Shown: positions 23,565 to 27,808 of the stretch, piece by piece | Layout: the number at the start of each line of letters is the position of its first letter | Numbering within the stretch: position 1 is the stretch's first letter | NCBI GenBank assembly: GCA_913058395.1 | Contig: CAJXQI010000027.1 | Span: forward strand, 1 to 47,032 | Source: an uncultured Colwellia sp. | Lineage (GTDB): Bacteria; Pseudomonadota; Gammaproteobacteria; Enterobacterales; Alteromonadaceae | Direction of reading: 5' to 3' | Length of the DNA: 47,032 nucleotides | Translations under genes and position numbers: made by a program | The notes under the pieces: model-generated | Database searches by the model: none | What the model was told of the DNA's origin: nothing | The model's input: only the letters and a program-made list of their open reading frames with translations

Positions 23565-23803
23565 TATTCCAACCTTTTAAACCTATAGACATTTACTTAC
23601 TAGAGTAGGTATTCTCCAGTAAATTCTACAAAAGTACCATAGTAAAATAAGTTAAATAGCGATTAATTGTCATTTTTTTTGCTACTAATGTGTAAATTTT
23701 ATCTTCTACAGTCGAATATAAATAAATACTTTAAAATTAACGCTGTTTTGCTATGGTAAATAACTATATAGCTGACTTTATTCAATTACCTCTGGGACTT
23801 TTA

Positions 23804-25582
23804 ATGAAAGTATTTTTAACGGCAACAATGATGTTGTTTCTCTTGACGGCTTGTCAGTCAAATCGTACTCAAGTATCTATTTTAAATACTGAACTTGAAC
23901 AGGTTATAAAAGGTTACCAAGCTTTTAAAGATCAGGAAAGCCCATTCAATCAAGATATTGCTGGTGAATCAAATAGCGAATTACCTGATTTATCTCCTAG
24001 CAACCTTAAACAGCAACATATTAAATTACTCGCCATATATCAGCGTTTAAGTGCCATAGACAGCAAAAAATTAGACCGCCAAGGTTTGATTAACCATTCT
24101 GTATTGTCATATACCATTAAAAATCAGCTTGATAGTTTTATTAATAAAGAACATTACATGCCATTGACTGCGGAGTCAGGTTTCCATGTGTGGATCAGCC
24201 GTATTAATCAACAAGTAAGCTTTAAAACAGAACAGGATTACCGTGATTATTTGGCTAGATTAACGGCACTACCTCATTACTTTTCTCAGCAGATGGCATG
24301 GATGGACAAAGGAATTTCAGAGGGTATTACTCAACCTAAAATTGTATTAGAAGGTTTTGAAGAGTCAATTAAGGCATTTATTAAAACAGATGTTACAAAG
24401 AGCACTTATTATCAGCCTTTCATTGCTATGCCAAACCACCTTTCTCAAGGGCTGAAGTCACAATTAAGGGCTGAAGCATCTAAAGCAATTCAACAATCTG
24501 TTATGCCAAGTTATCAGAAATATTATGACTATATGGTAAAGCGCTACCAACCAAACGCCAGAACCAATATTGCAGCAACATCATTACCTAACGGTGAAGG
24601 TTACTATTTAAATCGCTTACAGCATTACACTACTTTGCCAATGACGGTTGAACAAGTTCATCAAACGGGTGTAGCAGAAGTAAAACGCATTCGGCTTGAA
24701 ATGCAGAAAATTATTGACCAAGTAGGTTTTGAAGGAAGCTTTGCTGATTTTGTTCAATTTCTACGTACTGATAAACAATTTTACGCCACTAGTCCTGAAG
24801 GCTTATTAAAAGAGGCGTCATTCATTGCTAAGAAAATGGACGCACAGCTACCTAAGTTATTTAAAACCTTACCTCGCACACCTTATGGTGTGGTAGAAGT
24901 TCCCGCCAATATTGCGCCTAAATACACCACAGGCAGATATTCAGGTCCATCTAGAGATGATCAACCTGGTAATTACTGGGTTAATACTTATCGTTTAGAC
25001 CGTCGTCCATTATATGTTTTAGAAGCATTAACTTTGCATGAAGCAGTGCCCGGTCATCACTTGCAAGGTTCAATTGCACGTGAAATGAAGAATGTACCAA
25101 AATTTCGAAACAGCACTTACATTTCAGCTTTTGGTGAAGGCTGGGGTTTATACTCTGAATATTTAGGCATTGAAGCTGGGTTTTATCAAAGTCCGTATAG
25201 TGATTTCGGTCGTCTGACTTATGAAATGTGGCGAGCTAGCCGATTGGTAGTTGATACCGGTATGCACGCTAAAGGTTGGAGTCGTGAACAAGCAATGAAT
25301 TTTCTAGCTAGTAATACCGCACTGTCATTACATAATGTTAAAACAGAAATTGATCGTTATATCTCTTGGCCTGGGCAAGCTTTGTCATACAAAATGGGTG
25401 AGTTAACCATTAAAAGATTACGTAAAATGGCTGAAACTGAATTAGGTGAAACATTTGATTTAAGAGAGTTTCATGATCAAATTTTGAAAAATGGCTCTAT
25501 GCCTTTATCTATGCTTGAAGTTATTGTGACTGAATATATTAATGAGCGTAAAACTCAGCAAGAGAATGTTAAAACGGACTGA
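23804..25582 (+). CDS. DUF885 zinc-peptidase-like lipoprotein
   Basis: DUF885 proteins resemble carboxypeptidase/M32-type zinc metallopeptidases. From ATG 23804, preceded by GGGA, the 592-residue product has a lipoprotein signal ending LLTAC (Cys17), so it is probably membrane-attached in the periplasm. The metal site is HEAVPGHHLQ (His412, Glu413), followed by EGWGLYSEYLG with a further glutamate, the normal DUF885 arrangement. C-terminal SWPGQALSYKMGEL is also conserved. A start at 23753 would add 17 residues before the signal and is less likely. Its stop codon is the edge of a GEMM-like sequence, and the 3' end lies under a predicted antisense riboswitch transcript. Confidence 0.88.
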   Translation: MKVFLTATMMLFLLTACQSNRTQVSILNTELEQVIKGYQAFKDQESPFNQDIAGESNSELPDLSPSNLKQQHIKLLAIYQRLSAIDSKKLDRQGLINHSVLSYTIKNQLDSFINKEHYMPLTAESGFHVWISRINQQVSFKTEQDYRDYLARLTALPHYFSQQMAWMDKGISEGITQPKIVLEGFEESIKAFIKTDVTKSTYYQPFIAMPNHLSQGLKSQLRAEASKAIQQSVMPSYQKYYDYMVKRYQPNARTNIAATSLPNGEGYYLNRLQHYTTLPMTVEQVHQTGVAEVKRIRLEMQKIIDQVGFEGSFADFVQFLRTDKQFYATSPEGLLKEASFIAKKMDAQLPKLFKTLPRTPYGVVEVPANIAPKYTTGRYSGPSRDDQPGNYWVNTYRLDRRPLYVLEALTLHEAVPGHHLQGSIAREMKNVPKFRNSTYISAFGEGWGLYSEYLGIEAGFYQSPYSDFGRLTYEMWRASRLVVDTGMHAKGWSREQAMNFLASNTALSLHNVKTEIDRYISWPGQALSYKMGELTIKRLRKMAETELGETFDLREFHDQILKNGSMPLSMLEVIVTEYINERKTQQENVKTD

Positions 25583-25633
25583 TAAACAAAGGAGGCACGC
25601 AAAGCTACCGGAGGATATGACAGTGGACTGGTC
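25581..25633 (+). promoter_or_regulatory. Degenerate GEMM-like (c-di-GMP-I) sequence, plus strand
   Basis: From the DUF885 stop codon onward the plus strand reads GATAAAC, then GGCACGCAAAGCTACCGG (25594-25611) and ATATGACAGTGGACTGGTC (25615-25633). These match the 3' two thirds of the c-di-GMP-I aptamer (CGCAAAGCYAY-GG, AUGAYAGCNGGRYUG). The P1b hairpin with its GAAA loop is missing or reduced and P2 is shortened. It is in mirror orientation to the good aptamer on the minus strand. It could be a decayed riboswitch, or serve as the pairing partner of the minus-strand RNA. Confidence 0.45.
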
Positions 25634-25662
25634 AACAAAGACAAGCCCCCACTATATCTAAA

Positions 25663-25740
25663 TTTGGCAGTCCCGCTATCATAGGCTTCCCCTTAGATCG
25701 GTAACTTTGCGTCTCCAGCTTTCACTGGGTTTGCCTTTGT
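25663..25740 (-). promoter_or_regulatory. c-di-GMP-I riboswitch aptamer (GEMM), orphan
   Basis: On the minus strand the sequence runs GGCAAACC (25735-25728), a P1b hairpin CCAGT-GAAA-GCTGG with the GAAA tetraloop, GACGCAAAG, TTACCGATCTAAGG, and ATGATAGCGGGACTGCC ending at 25666. This aligns block by block with Vibrio Vc2: GGCAAACC, GAAA, GACGCAAAG, CTAA and GGTAGCGGGG. The ends GGCA and TGCC can form P1. All core elements of c-di-GMP binding (P1 G, the ACGCAAAG joining strand, the AGCGGG region) are present. A promoter lies directly upstream, but no minus-strand gene follows: transcription runs antisense into the DUF885 gene. The remaining spacer 25792-25966 shows no further gene. Confidence 0.88.
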
Positions 25741-25763
25741 CGAGCTTTAACAGCTCACCGATG

Positions 25764-25791
25764 ATTATAGGCAAAGAAATATATTTGTAAA
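25764..25791 (-). promoter_or_regulatory. Sigma70-type promoter for the orphan riboswitch RNA
   Basis: On the minus strand TTTACA (25791-25786) is followed after 16 bases by a perfect TATAAT (25769-25764). The predicted start, near 25757, is just before a small 5' hairpin (GAGCTGTTAAAGCTC, 25756-25742) and then the aptamer. Confidence 0.7.
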
Positions 25792-25966
25792 CTATTTTTA
25801 ATGTAATCAAATCAATTCATGCGTTAACATACTAAATAATCAGCGAAAGTACTAATATGTATCATGCGCCTTTAAGTGTGCAAAATACTAACTCACTAGT
25901 CTTTATTTACGAATTAAGCTTAGCAAGGTGAATGATCTGGATGTACAACATGGAAGTTTTATATAA

Positions 25967-27808
25967 GTGATACGAATACTGTTGTGCATTTGTTTGAGTT
26001 ACTTTCTTGCTTTGTTGAGCCAAGCTACGGTGTTCGATGCCAAGACAAATTATCGTAAATTGCTCAATAACTATTACACGCAAGATAAGGAATCACTTAT
26101 TTATCAAGATGTTGTTAAGGTATCTCAAACTGTTGTTAATAATAGAAAAAAGTATAGTAGGGATATAGTTGCAAAAGCCTTTTCATTGCTATCAGATACC
26201 GCTTTTAACCGCGGAGATTTAGTCGTAGCGCTACAGTTTGCTCAATACGGTGTTAGCATTGAAAAGATAGCGGTAATGATCAAGCTTGATTTATTGTTGA
26301 AAGTAGCACGGGGATATTATTCTCAGGGAAAATATATCGAGTTAAGAGACATTTCTCAAGAAGCAGCATGGTTAGCTGAACAAGCTGGTAATATGAATTA
26401 CCACTTACAAGCAAGTGCTTACTCGGTGGTAGCATATGCTTTAAGTGCCGATTATACGTTAGCCGCAGCCGAGCTGAGTAAAGTTGAGCAATTATTGGCA
26501 CAAAATCAACATATCGTTGAGCAAGTTACTTTATTAGAAATACTGGCCGAAGCACACTTTTATTTGGCTGAATACGACAATGTAACTGAATTGCTAAATC
26601 GGGTATTAAAATTACGCGTTGAAATGTCAAAAATGAAAGGTGTGGCAAAAACCTATCATTTACTTGCTGAAGCATATTTTCAATTACATCAATATGATAA
26701 TGCTTATTACGCCTATTTTGAATCAAAGCAGTTTTCTTCGAAGTATGGTCTTAATATCCGTTCATCTTATGCTGAACTTGGTCTCGGAAAAGTATTATAT
26801 CAGCAACAAAATTTTACTCAGGCTAAAGAACACCTAGTTAGGGCATTGGCGATTTTTGAGCGTTATAATTTAACGCGTACCAAGCTTTCCACGCAAATTA
26901 TTCTGGCGAAAGTCTATTATGGTTTAAATGAGCCAGAGCAAGCTATTCGGTTTTTACTGCTAGCTGAGAATTTAGCTGAAAAAATAGTATTAACACCACA
27001 GCAAATAGAACTGTATTTGTTACTGTCAAAGTATTACCAATCAGGCAATCAATTGCAGCAAGTCGTTGCCGCACAACAGAAGTATATCGAGCTATATAAA
27101 ACCTTCAACCCGGGAGGTAATAAAAAAAGTGTCGTTGCTGCCACTGCAGCTAATACTAGTGATAAGACCCAAAAGTTAGCGTTGAACTTGGCGGAAAATA
27201 GTGAATTGAGTTTACGTTTTAGCAAAAAATTTCAGCGACAAAAATTACTCATTACAATACTAACGATAGTTCTTAGCTTATTGGCCTTGGTTTATGCTTT
27301 TAAACGTTTTCGTCGTTATAGAAAAAAATTACACCAGGGTTATGACGATGTCGAATTATCGAATAATCAGTTAGCGCGCCCCGTAAAAACAAAACAGTGG
27401 TATCAACAGCAATATAAAATTGCTCGAAAGTATCAATATAATATTTCAGTTGCTTATTTGGTGGTTGAAAACTGGCAAGAGCTTAGCTTTCATTTTAGTA
27501 CAAAAATATTAGACGACGTTTATCAAGCTATTGCTATTATTGTCAACGAACACCTCGAAGAAGAAGATTTTTCAGGTGAGATAAGTGCTGGTGAATATTT
27601 ATTTTTATGTCCGTATCAAAGTACAGAAGAAGTGCTAATTAAGCTGACACGGATTCAGCAGGCAATTAAGACGAGATTTTTTGCCAATTTAGGTGATTAT
27701 TCAGTTAAAATTAGTTTTTCAGTCGCTTCACCCAATATTCAAGATATTGATCCTTATGTTTTTCTTTCGCGTTTAAGTGATAATGCTGGTGCGGAACTTA
27801 GTGAGTAA
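25967..27808 (+). CDS. TPR membrane protein with degenerate GGDEF-like C-terminal domain
   Basis: The 613-residue product starts with a signal sequence (residues 2-20), then a periplasmic TPR region (about 60-390; recognisable repeats such as YLAEYDNVTELLNRVLKL and GKVLYQQQNFTQAKEHLVRAL), one span near 427-445 and a cytoplasmic domain of about 150 residues. That domain has a GGDEF-like layout, but the signature turn is SAGEYLFLCP (540-549) and no NxxxGHxxGD-like metal site is visible. It is therefore probably a non-catalytic sensor. The start is GTG 25967; no strong SD was seen. The next gene follows after 14 bases. Confidence 0.75.
   Translation: MIRILLCICLSYFLALLSQATVFDAKTNYRKLLNNYYTQDKESLIYQDVVKVSQTVVNNRKKYSRDIVAKAFSLLSDTAFNRGDLVVALQFAQYGVSIEKIAVMIKLDLLLKVARGYYSQGKYIELRDISQEAAWLAEQAGNMNYHLQASAYSVVAYALSADYTLAAAELSKVEQLLAQNQHIVEQVTLLEILAEAHFYLAEYDNVTELLNRVLKLRVEMSKMKGVAKTYHLLAEAYFQLHQYDNAYYAYFESKQFSSKYGLNIRSSYAELGLGKVLYQQQNFTQAKEHLVRALAIFERYNLTRTKLSTQIILAKVYYGLNEPEQAIRFLLLAENLAEKIVLTPQQIELYLLLSKYYQSGNQLQQVVAAQQKYIELYKTFNPGGNKKSVVAATAANTSDKTQKLALNLAENSELSLRFSKKFQRQKLLITILTIVLSLLALVYAFKRFRRYRKKLHQGYDDVELSNNQLARPVKTKQWYQQQYKIARKYQYNISVAYLVVENWQELSFHFSTKILDDVYQAIAIIVNEHLEEEDFSGEISAGEYLFLCPYQSTEEVLIKLTRIQQAIKTRFFANLGDYSVKISFSVASPNIQDIDPYVFLSRLSDNAGAELSE

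What the first reader, a model, noticed from the sequence alone, without database searches (positions are those of the whole stretch)
25663..25791. Orphan c-di-GMP-I riboswitch with its own promoter, antisense to a peptidase gene
The minus strand shows a promoter (TTTACA, 16 bases, TATAAT), a short 5' hairpin and a GEMM-I aptamer matching the Vc2 core. Such aptamers normally sit in the 5' leader of a gene, but here no minus-strand gene follows for 2 kb; the RNA would enter the 3' end of the DUF885 gene in antisense. It may be a c-di-GMP-dependent small or antisense RNA, or a leader that lost its gene.
Basis: partly seen in the sequence, partly recalled or inferred. Interest (0 to 1): 0.78.

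Follow-up and report, generated by a model that had tools for sequence, protein, structure and literature searches.

The report
Stand-alone c-di-GMP-sensing small RNA
The window holds what looks like a separate small RNA gene, found again in many related marine bacteria, in which a sensor for the signal molecule c-di-GMP is followed by a strand that can pair back onto the sensor, so it is more likely a signal-controlled RNA in its own right than a leader that lost its gene.

Summary
The aptamer is real: RF01051, minus strand 25745-25663, 75.3 bits, cutoff 35, behind promoter TTTACA-16-TATAAT. The feature is larger than reported, about 25757 to 25583: 5' hairpin, aptamer, a hairpin with a UGGGGG loop, and a 3' arm complementary to the aptamer core, ending in a pyrimidine tract beside the DUF885 stop codon.

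76 distinct relatives were collected. In the 50 named records 49 titles name Colwellia, Cognaticolwellia, Thalassotalea, Litorilituus or Alteromonadaceae. The next gene varies: DUF885 on the opposite strand in 51, a diguanylate cyclase in 21, neither in 2, contig cut in 2; the estimated RNA end overlaps DUF885 in 7 of 51. Arms pair better with their own aptamer than with other species' aptamers; flanking-DNA controls are null.

Best reading: a stand-alone RNA with two competing folds, switched by c-di-GMP. Its output is unknown; action in trans is my preferred inference. Nearest precedent: Bdellovibrio merRNA. Transcription and ligand binding are untested.

The parts
25764..25791 (-). sigma-70-type promoter: TTTACA 25791-25786, 16-nt spacer, TATAAT 25769-25764
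   Evidence: kept in relatives: TTTACA 56 of 60, TATAAT 56 of 60, spacer 16 in 57 of 60. Start of the RNA near 25757 is inferred from the usual distance to the -10 box (recalled), not mapped
25742..25756 (-). 5' hairpin GAGCU-GUUAA-AGCUC directly before the aptamer
   Evidence: consensus helix in 57 aligned members with changes on both sides at several pairs
25663..25745 (-). c-di-GMP-I (GEMM-I) aptamer
   Evidence: RF01051, 75.3 bits; 32 of 32 further members scanned pass the gathering score of a c-di-GMP-I-clan family, 29 as RF01051 and 3 as RF03167
25640..25658 (-). apical hairpin with bulged U and UGGGGG loop
   Evidence: 76 members: loop UGGGGG 75, CGGGGG 1; bulge U 74, C 2; stem pair 1 GC 73, AU 1, GU 2; pair 2 AU 74, GC 2; pair 3 UA 52, UG 19, CG 4, AU 1; pair 5 AU 75, one mismatch. 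Most members were found through this motif, so its invariance is biased; the 17 found through the aptamer all have it
25597..25639 (-). 3' arm complementary to the aptamer; CUUUGCGU at 25604-25597 is the complement of the aptamer core ACGCAAAG
   Evidence: inverted repeat 25597-25610 with 25699-25712, 93%; CTTTGC in 60 of 60 (a member without it would have been kept, none was); own-versus-swapped test; 0 of 15 other GEMM-I loci have CTTTGC within 150 nt
25583..25596 (-). pyrimidine-rich tail, pairs with the 5' edge of the aptamer at the base of the long hairpin; probable 3' end
   Evidence: A is 0-8% at positions 9-21 after the CTTTGC start against 20-45% at positions 26-40 in 60 members; base-helix test 0 of 20000 permutations. 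The 3' end itself is inferred

Best explanation
A stand-alone, c-di-GMP-responsive non-coding RNA of about 175 nt with its own promoter and two competing folds. During transcription the GEMM-I aptamer folds first. If c-di-GMP is bound, the aptamer holds and the 3' arm stays free, exposing CUUUGCGU and a CU-rich, anti-Shine-Dalgarno-like tract. If not, the arm zips back from the apical hairpin over the aptamer into one long hairpin that hides the arm and may also serve as the terminator. The fixed UGGGGG loop is present in both folds and is probably the docking site for a constant partner, RNA or protein. The free arm most likely acts in trans on other RNAs. Shown by sequence: the conserved parts, their constant linkage, the matching of arm and aptamer, the lack of an obligate neighbour gene. 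Inferred: transcription, c-di-GMP binding, folding order, the 3' end and the trans output.
For: Aptamer 75.3 bits and promoter. 76 distinct members. Neighbours vary: 51 DUF885 minus, 21 cyclase plus, 2 neither, 2 cut; upstream 70 TPR gene, 6 thioesterase homologue. Own-versus-swapped pairing: base 0, middle 6, whole 0 of 20000 permutations; controls 7279 and 14735; 12 diverse representatives 11, 412, 399, controls 11649 and 10947. Predicted pairing of the core with the arm has mean probability 0.94 over 76 members, above 0.5 in 76. The apical stem changes by compensation while the loop stays. Window RNA: MFE -73.4, z -4.86, 0 of 200 shuffles.
Against: No transcript, ligand or partner data. The long fold is on average 15.7 kcal/mol below the two halves folded apart (60 members, range 4.3 to 28.4), too much for ligand to overturn at equilibrium in many members, so a switch would have to be kinetic. 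The core pairing never varies and cannot covary; RNAalifold on 57 members predicts the aptamer fold and pairs CUUUG with CAAGG/UAAGG instead. In the raw test L080's own arm is poor: 31 of 31 other arms pair better with its aptamer. Aptamer-downstream duplex z-scores overlap: members -0.6 to -4.3, other loci -1.6 to +2.5. The permutation test handles relatedness only partly. No recurring target for the loop was found.
Confidence: 0.5

Rival explanations
1. c-di-GMP sink or store: an abundant RNA that binds up c-di-GMP, as proposed for Bdellovibrio merRNA, the long hairpin serving stability or release of the ligand.
For: Stand-alone RNA with near-consensus promoter; merRNA precedent (PMC3627812, passages).
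Against: A sink needs no arm that competes with its own aptamer and no fixed loop, yet both are kept. Abundance is unknown.
Confidence: 0.2
2. Ligand-gated antisense control of DUF885: c-di-GMP blocks the terminator-like hairpin, and read-through RNA runs antisense into the DUF885 gene.
For: DUF885 is the next gene, opposite strand, in 51 of 76 members; antisense-acting riboswitches are described (PMC9943018: abstract and passages), with 152 putative antisense c-di-GMP cases in its Table 1.
Against: 21 of 76 have the cyclase next instead and 2 neither; the RNA body overlaps DUF885 in 7 of 51, and the gap reaches 446 nt.
Confidence: 0.12
3. Riboswitch leader of the diguanylate cyclase gene (feedback control), with DUF885 inserted between them in many genomes.
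For: The cyclase is on the same strand and first downstream in 21 of 76; it also lies beyond DUF885 in 22 of the 37 DUF885 cases with more than 4.5 kb of sequence.
Against: It was not found downstream in 15 of those 37 and in L084. An upstream element GCACTTT-N-CTAGAGAAT precedes the cyclase in 14 of 21 adjacent and 19 of 24 separated cases, 31 of 900 shuffles (pattern chosen after looking, at least 2 of the 33 look spurious), pointing to a promoter of its own.
Confidence: 0.1
4. A relic without function.
For: No downstream gene within 2 kb in the window.
Against: 76 members with intact parts, Rfam scores of 63.5 to 85.5 in the 32 scanned, kept promoter.
Confidence: 0.03

Closest known systems
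merRNA of Bdellovibrio bacteriovorus (PMC3627812; passages read)
   Same: Non-coding RNA with a c-di-GMP riboswitch and no conserved downstream ORF
   Different: merRNA is 445 nt, massively expressed in attack phase, reported as not conserved outside Bdellovibrio; mirror arm and loop were not compared. The present RNA is about 175 nt, expression unknown, with a complementary arm and a fixed loop
Antisense-acting riboswitches: SAM riboswitch of Clostridium acetobutylicum, cobalamin riboswitch at Listeria pocR (from the abstract of PMC9943018)
   Same: Aptamer at the 3' end of a gene on the opposite strand
   Different: Here the gene on the other strand is not constant and the RNA body rarely overlaps it
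Rli55 / EutX, riboswitch-containing RNAs that sequester a protein (recalled; papers seen only in the listing)
   Same: A riboswitch that controls a non-coding RNA acting in trans
   Different: Other ligand and aptamer; no partner known here, and trans action is inferred
Ordinary GEMM-I leaders, e.g. the two others in this genome (L002, L003)
   Same: The aptamer
   Different: Those are followed within about 70 nt by an ATG and have no CTTTGC arm within 150 nt

Membership tests
c-di-GMP-I riboswitch aptamer (RF01051) | Covariance score above the gathering threshold | tested here: met
   75.3 bits against 35
c-di-GMP-I riboswitch aptamer (RF01051) | Binds c-di-GMP | not testable with these tools
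   Needs in-line probing. The G of GGCAAA that favours c-di-GMP over cGAMP is present (position rule recalled)
cis-acting riboswitch (leader of a gene) | Same-strand gene directly downstream across relatives | tested here: not met
   Same-strand cyclase first in 21 of 76, opposite-strand DUF885 in 51, neither 2, cut 2
antisense-acting riboswitch | Sits at the 3' end of an opposite-strand gene within 500 nt (criterion of PMC9943018, passage) | tested here: met
   True for this locus: 2-nt estimated overlap; not constant in relatives, 51 of 76
antisense-acting riboswitch | Antisense transcript regulates that gene | not testable with these tools
   No transcript data; RNA body overlaps the coding sequence in 7 of 51
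merRNA | Homologous sequence | not tested
   merRNA sequence was not compared
merRNA | Massive expression as a discrete RNA | not testable with these tools
   No RNA-seq held
merRNA | No conserved downstream ORF | tested here: met

The most novel reading that the evidence does not exclude
A c-di-GMP-gated trans-acting RNA: ligand binding frees an anti-aptamer arm that base-pairs with other RNAs, possibly including the two other GEMM-I aptamers of the same cell. The window's arm pairs with them at -41.2 and -40.5 kcal/mol, with 6 and 1 of 500 shuffled arms as good. One riboswitch could then retune the cell's other c-di-GMP riboswitches, with the fixed UGGGGG loop holding a partner. Since GEMM-I cores are alike, this pairing may be only a by-product of self-complementarity.
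Probability: 0.3. Interest if true: 0.88.

Novelty: new variant of a known kind. Interest (0 to 1): 0.66.

Why it matters
Riboswitches are mostly read as leaders of genes. A c-di-GMP sensor kept as a free RNA across a marine clade, with an arm that mirrors and competes with the sensor, would tie second-messenger signalling to RNA-based control in trans. The 76 natural variants make the question of what an orphan riboswitch does testable, and the fixed G-rich loop points to an unknown partner.

Tried and rejected
Target of the loop: its 10-nt complement has 65 matches in 18 genomes against 8 of the reversed control. 30 of the 65 sites were read: 7 are the RNA locus itself, 21 of the other 23 lie in an open frame of 120 codons or more, and one pair of orthologous sites recurs. 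No target is claimed; the excess is unexplained.

Non-members: the exact-motif hit in G049 (L095) has no aptamer motif. Of 73 matches of the 2-mismatch search 50 stretches were read, 39 members and 11 not; 23 were not fetched then, 13 of them being members fetched earlier and 10 never read.

Conserved peptide: ORFs starting in the RNA vary in length (longest per member median 37, up to 77 codons), and the reading frame after the GUG in the loop differs between members; rejected by inspection.

Short canonical terminator on the minus strand: none in the scan of 25400-26000, so the terminator role of the long hairpin is inference.

Raw own-versus-swapped energies were replaced by residuals with controls.

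Dropped before counts: L095 (no aptamer), L112 and L113 (too little flank), identical sequences; L090, L114, L141 were left out of the 57-row alignment.

Not run: a covariance model of the whole RNA, structure prediction, RNA-seq.

Full report
CHECK OF THE OBSERVATION. cmscan against Rfam 15 gives one match in the whole window at the gathering threshold: RF01051, 25745-25663 minus, 75.3 bits, cutoff 35. The plus-strand DUF885 gene ends at 25582 and the next minus-strand gene is the GGDEF gene 23564-22551, 2.0 kb on. The own genome has two more GEMM-I aptamers, each followed by an ATG within about 70 nt.

THE FEATURE IS LARGER. After the aptamer the minus strand holds a hairpin with a UGGGGG loop (25658-25640) and an arm whose CUUUGCGU (25604-25597) is the exact complement of the aptamer core ACGCAAAG; the repeat finder reports the inverted repeat 25597-25610 with 25699-25712, 14 nt, 93% complementary. 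The tail GCCUCCUUUGUUU reaches 25584, beside the DUF885 stop codon 25580-25582. The stretch 25765-25577 folds into one long hairpin at -73.4 kcal/mol, z -4.86, 0 of 200 shuffles as stable.

RELATIVES. (own genome and 60 relatives, 38 of 60 with a GEMM-I match) gave 32 GEMM-I loci. Seventeen, picked by eye and including this one, share promoter, 5' hairpin, aptamer type, loop and arm; 0 of the other 15 have CTTTGC within 150 nt downstream. An exact 15-mer of the loop region is in 33 of 147 genomes, once each, with no hit of the reversed control; one, G049, has no aptamer motif and was dropped. A 19-mer scan of the collection of 84,980 species genomes finds 50 stretches: by title 32 Colwellia, 8 Thalassotalea, 2 Cognaticolwellia, 1 Litorilituus, 6 Alteromonadaceae, 1 Endozoicomonas. 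Of these 48 had enough flank, and 48 of 48 have the aptamer motif. Distinct members at that point: 60. A 2-mismatch search matched 70 of 196 genomes of the family; of 50 stretches read, 39 are members and 11 are not. Total: 76 distinct members. Of these, 32 were scanned separately: 32 of 32 pass, 29 as RF01051 and 3 as its clan mate RF03167, 63.5-85.5 bits.

CONSERVED PARTS. In 60 members TTTACA occurs in 56, TATAAT in 56, a 16-nt spacer in 57; CTTTGC of the arm in 60. In the tail, A is 0-8% at positions 9-21 after the start of CTTTGC against 20-45% at positions 26-40. In 76 members the apical loop is UGGGGG in 75 and CGGGGG in 1, the bulge U in 74 and C in 2, while the stem varies by compensation: pair 1 GC 73, AU 1, GU 2; pair 2 AU 74, GC 2; pair 3 UA 52, UG 19, CG 4, AU 1; pair 5 AU 75 and one mismatch. 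That is an RNA hairpin with a fixed loop. Most members were found through this motif, which biases towards an intact loop; the 17 found through the aptamer all have it. The 5' hairpin and the aptamer's first hairpin also vary by compensation.

TWO COMPETING FOLDS. RNAalifold on 57 members predicts the aptamer with the two hairpins, plus a five-pair helix of CUUUG with YAAGG. Single-sequence ensembles instead pair the core with the arm: mean probability 0.94, lowest 0.74, 76 of 76 above 0.5. The core does not vary, so this pairing cannot covary; the rest of the arm was tested by pairing each aptamer in silico with its own and with every other arm and removing row and column means. Own pairs are better: base 0, middle 6, whole 0 of 20000 permutations as good. 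The same test with 67 nt of downstream or upstream DNA gives 7279 and 14735. Twelve representatives below 70% arm identity give 11, 412 and 399, controls 11649 and 10947. Against this: relatedness is handled only partly; L080's own arm is worse than 31 of 31 others in the raw comparison; aptamer-downstream duplex z-scores of members (-0.6 to -4.3) and of other loci (-1.6 to +2.5) overlap. The long fold is on average 15.7 kcal/mol below the two halves folded apart (60 members, range 4.3-28.4), so a switch would have to be decided during transcription.

NEIGHBOURS. Over 76 members the first downstream homologue of a window gene is DUF885 on the opposite strand in 51, the diguanylate cyclase on the same strand in 21, neither in 2, contig cut in 2; upstream it is the divergent TPR gene in 70 and a thioesterase homologue in 6. 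In those 6 (L127, L211-L214, L220) the cyclase was not found downstream either, and the RNA remains. Taking the RNA end as 24 nt after the start of CTTTGC, the DUF885 stop lies from 45 nt inside to 446 nt beyond it; it overlaps in 7 of 51, the window by 2 nt. The cyclase has an upstream element GCACTTT-N(10-18)-CTAGAGAAT, up to 2 mismatches each, in 33 of 45 cases (14 of 21 adjacent to the RNA, 19 of 24 separated), 31 of 900 shuffles; I chose the pattern after looking, and L038 and L044, at another distance, look spurious. Neither gene explains the RNA.

MECHANISM. The best reading is a free RNA in which aptamer and arm compete and c-di-GMP decides during transcription. Trans action of the freed arm, a change of length by termination, and storage of c-di-GMP are not separated by these data. 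I prefer trans action because the loop is fixed and present in both predicted folds and the arm carries a CU-rich stretch like the anti-Shine-Dalgarno sequence (likeness recalled). The window's arm can also pair with the two other GEMM-I aptamers of its genome; 6 and 1 of 500 shuffled arms do as well. A search for the loop's complement gave no target.

KNOWN WORK. merRNA of Bdellovibrio is the nearest precedent (PMC3627812, passages). A 2023 survey lists 152 putative antisense c-di-GMP riboswitches and names an uncharacterised ORF of Colwellia sp. PAMC 21821 (PMC9943018: abstract, outline, passages, sections 21 and 26). It may be this locus; the text seen gives neither the riboswitch class nor the gene family. 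Seven other or earlier searches of the library listed no paper that I recognised as describing this RNA; only listings were seen, and the library lacks most subscription journals.

ORGANISM. Two genomes of its genus have contigs of exactly the length of named Cognaticolwellia records (476169 and 728031 bases), so the window is probably from Cognaticolwellia (inference).

The list fields were rewritten, 'all' statements were replaced by counts, and results against the reading (L080, overlapping z-scores, the RNAalifold pairing, the excess of loop complements) were added. The overall odds are those I hold after these additions.

Noticed in passing
window 23565-23752 (minus) and relatives with the cyclase: The diguanylate cyclase gene has a recurring upstream element GCACTTT-N-CTAGAGAAT, about 60-90 nt before its start, in 33 of 45 relatives; it may be a promoter of another sigma factor.
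   Followed up: partly
window 25967-27808 (+): The divergent neighbour has TPR repeats and a C-terminal stretch like GGDEF but below the curated cutoff (TIGR00254, 27.1 against 37.4 bits; Pfam lists only TPR families). It is the upstream neighbour in 70 of 76 members.
   Followed up: partly
G013:C35:414126-414201 (-) and 414816-414891 (+): Two GEMM-I aptamers on opposite strands, about 600 bases apart, in a genome of the same genus.
   Followed up: no
18 genomes: The complement of the apical loop (10 nt) occurs 65 times against 8 for the reversed pattern; at most 11 or so are the RNA locus itself. Codon usage may explain it; not tested.
   Followed up: partly
L109 / G017:C41: A record titled Endozoicomonas sp. 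G2_1 carries this RNA; a contig of the same length is in a genome placed in the window's family, so the title is probably a misnomer.
   Followed up: no
window 25562-25591 and 25611-25640: Two imperfect direct repeats of 30 nt (73%) span the DUF885 stop codon and the 3' arm; possibly chance.
   Followed up: no
L086, 0.4-2.3 kb upstream of the RNA: The TPR gene is split into three ORFs in this metagenome-assembled genome.
   Followed up: no
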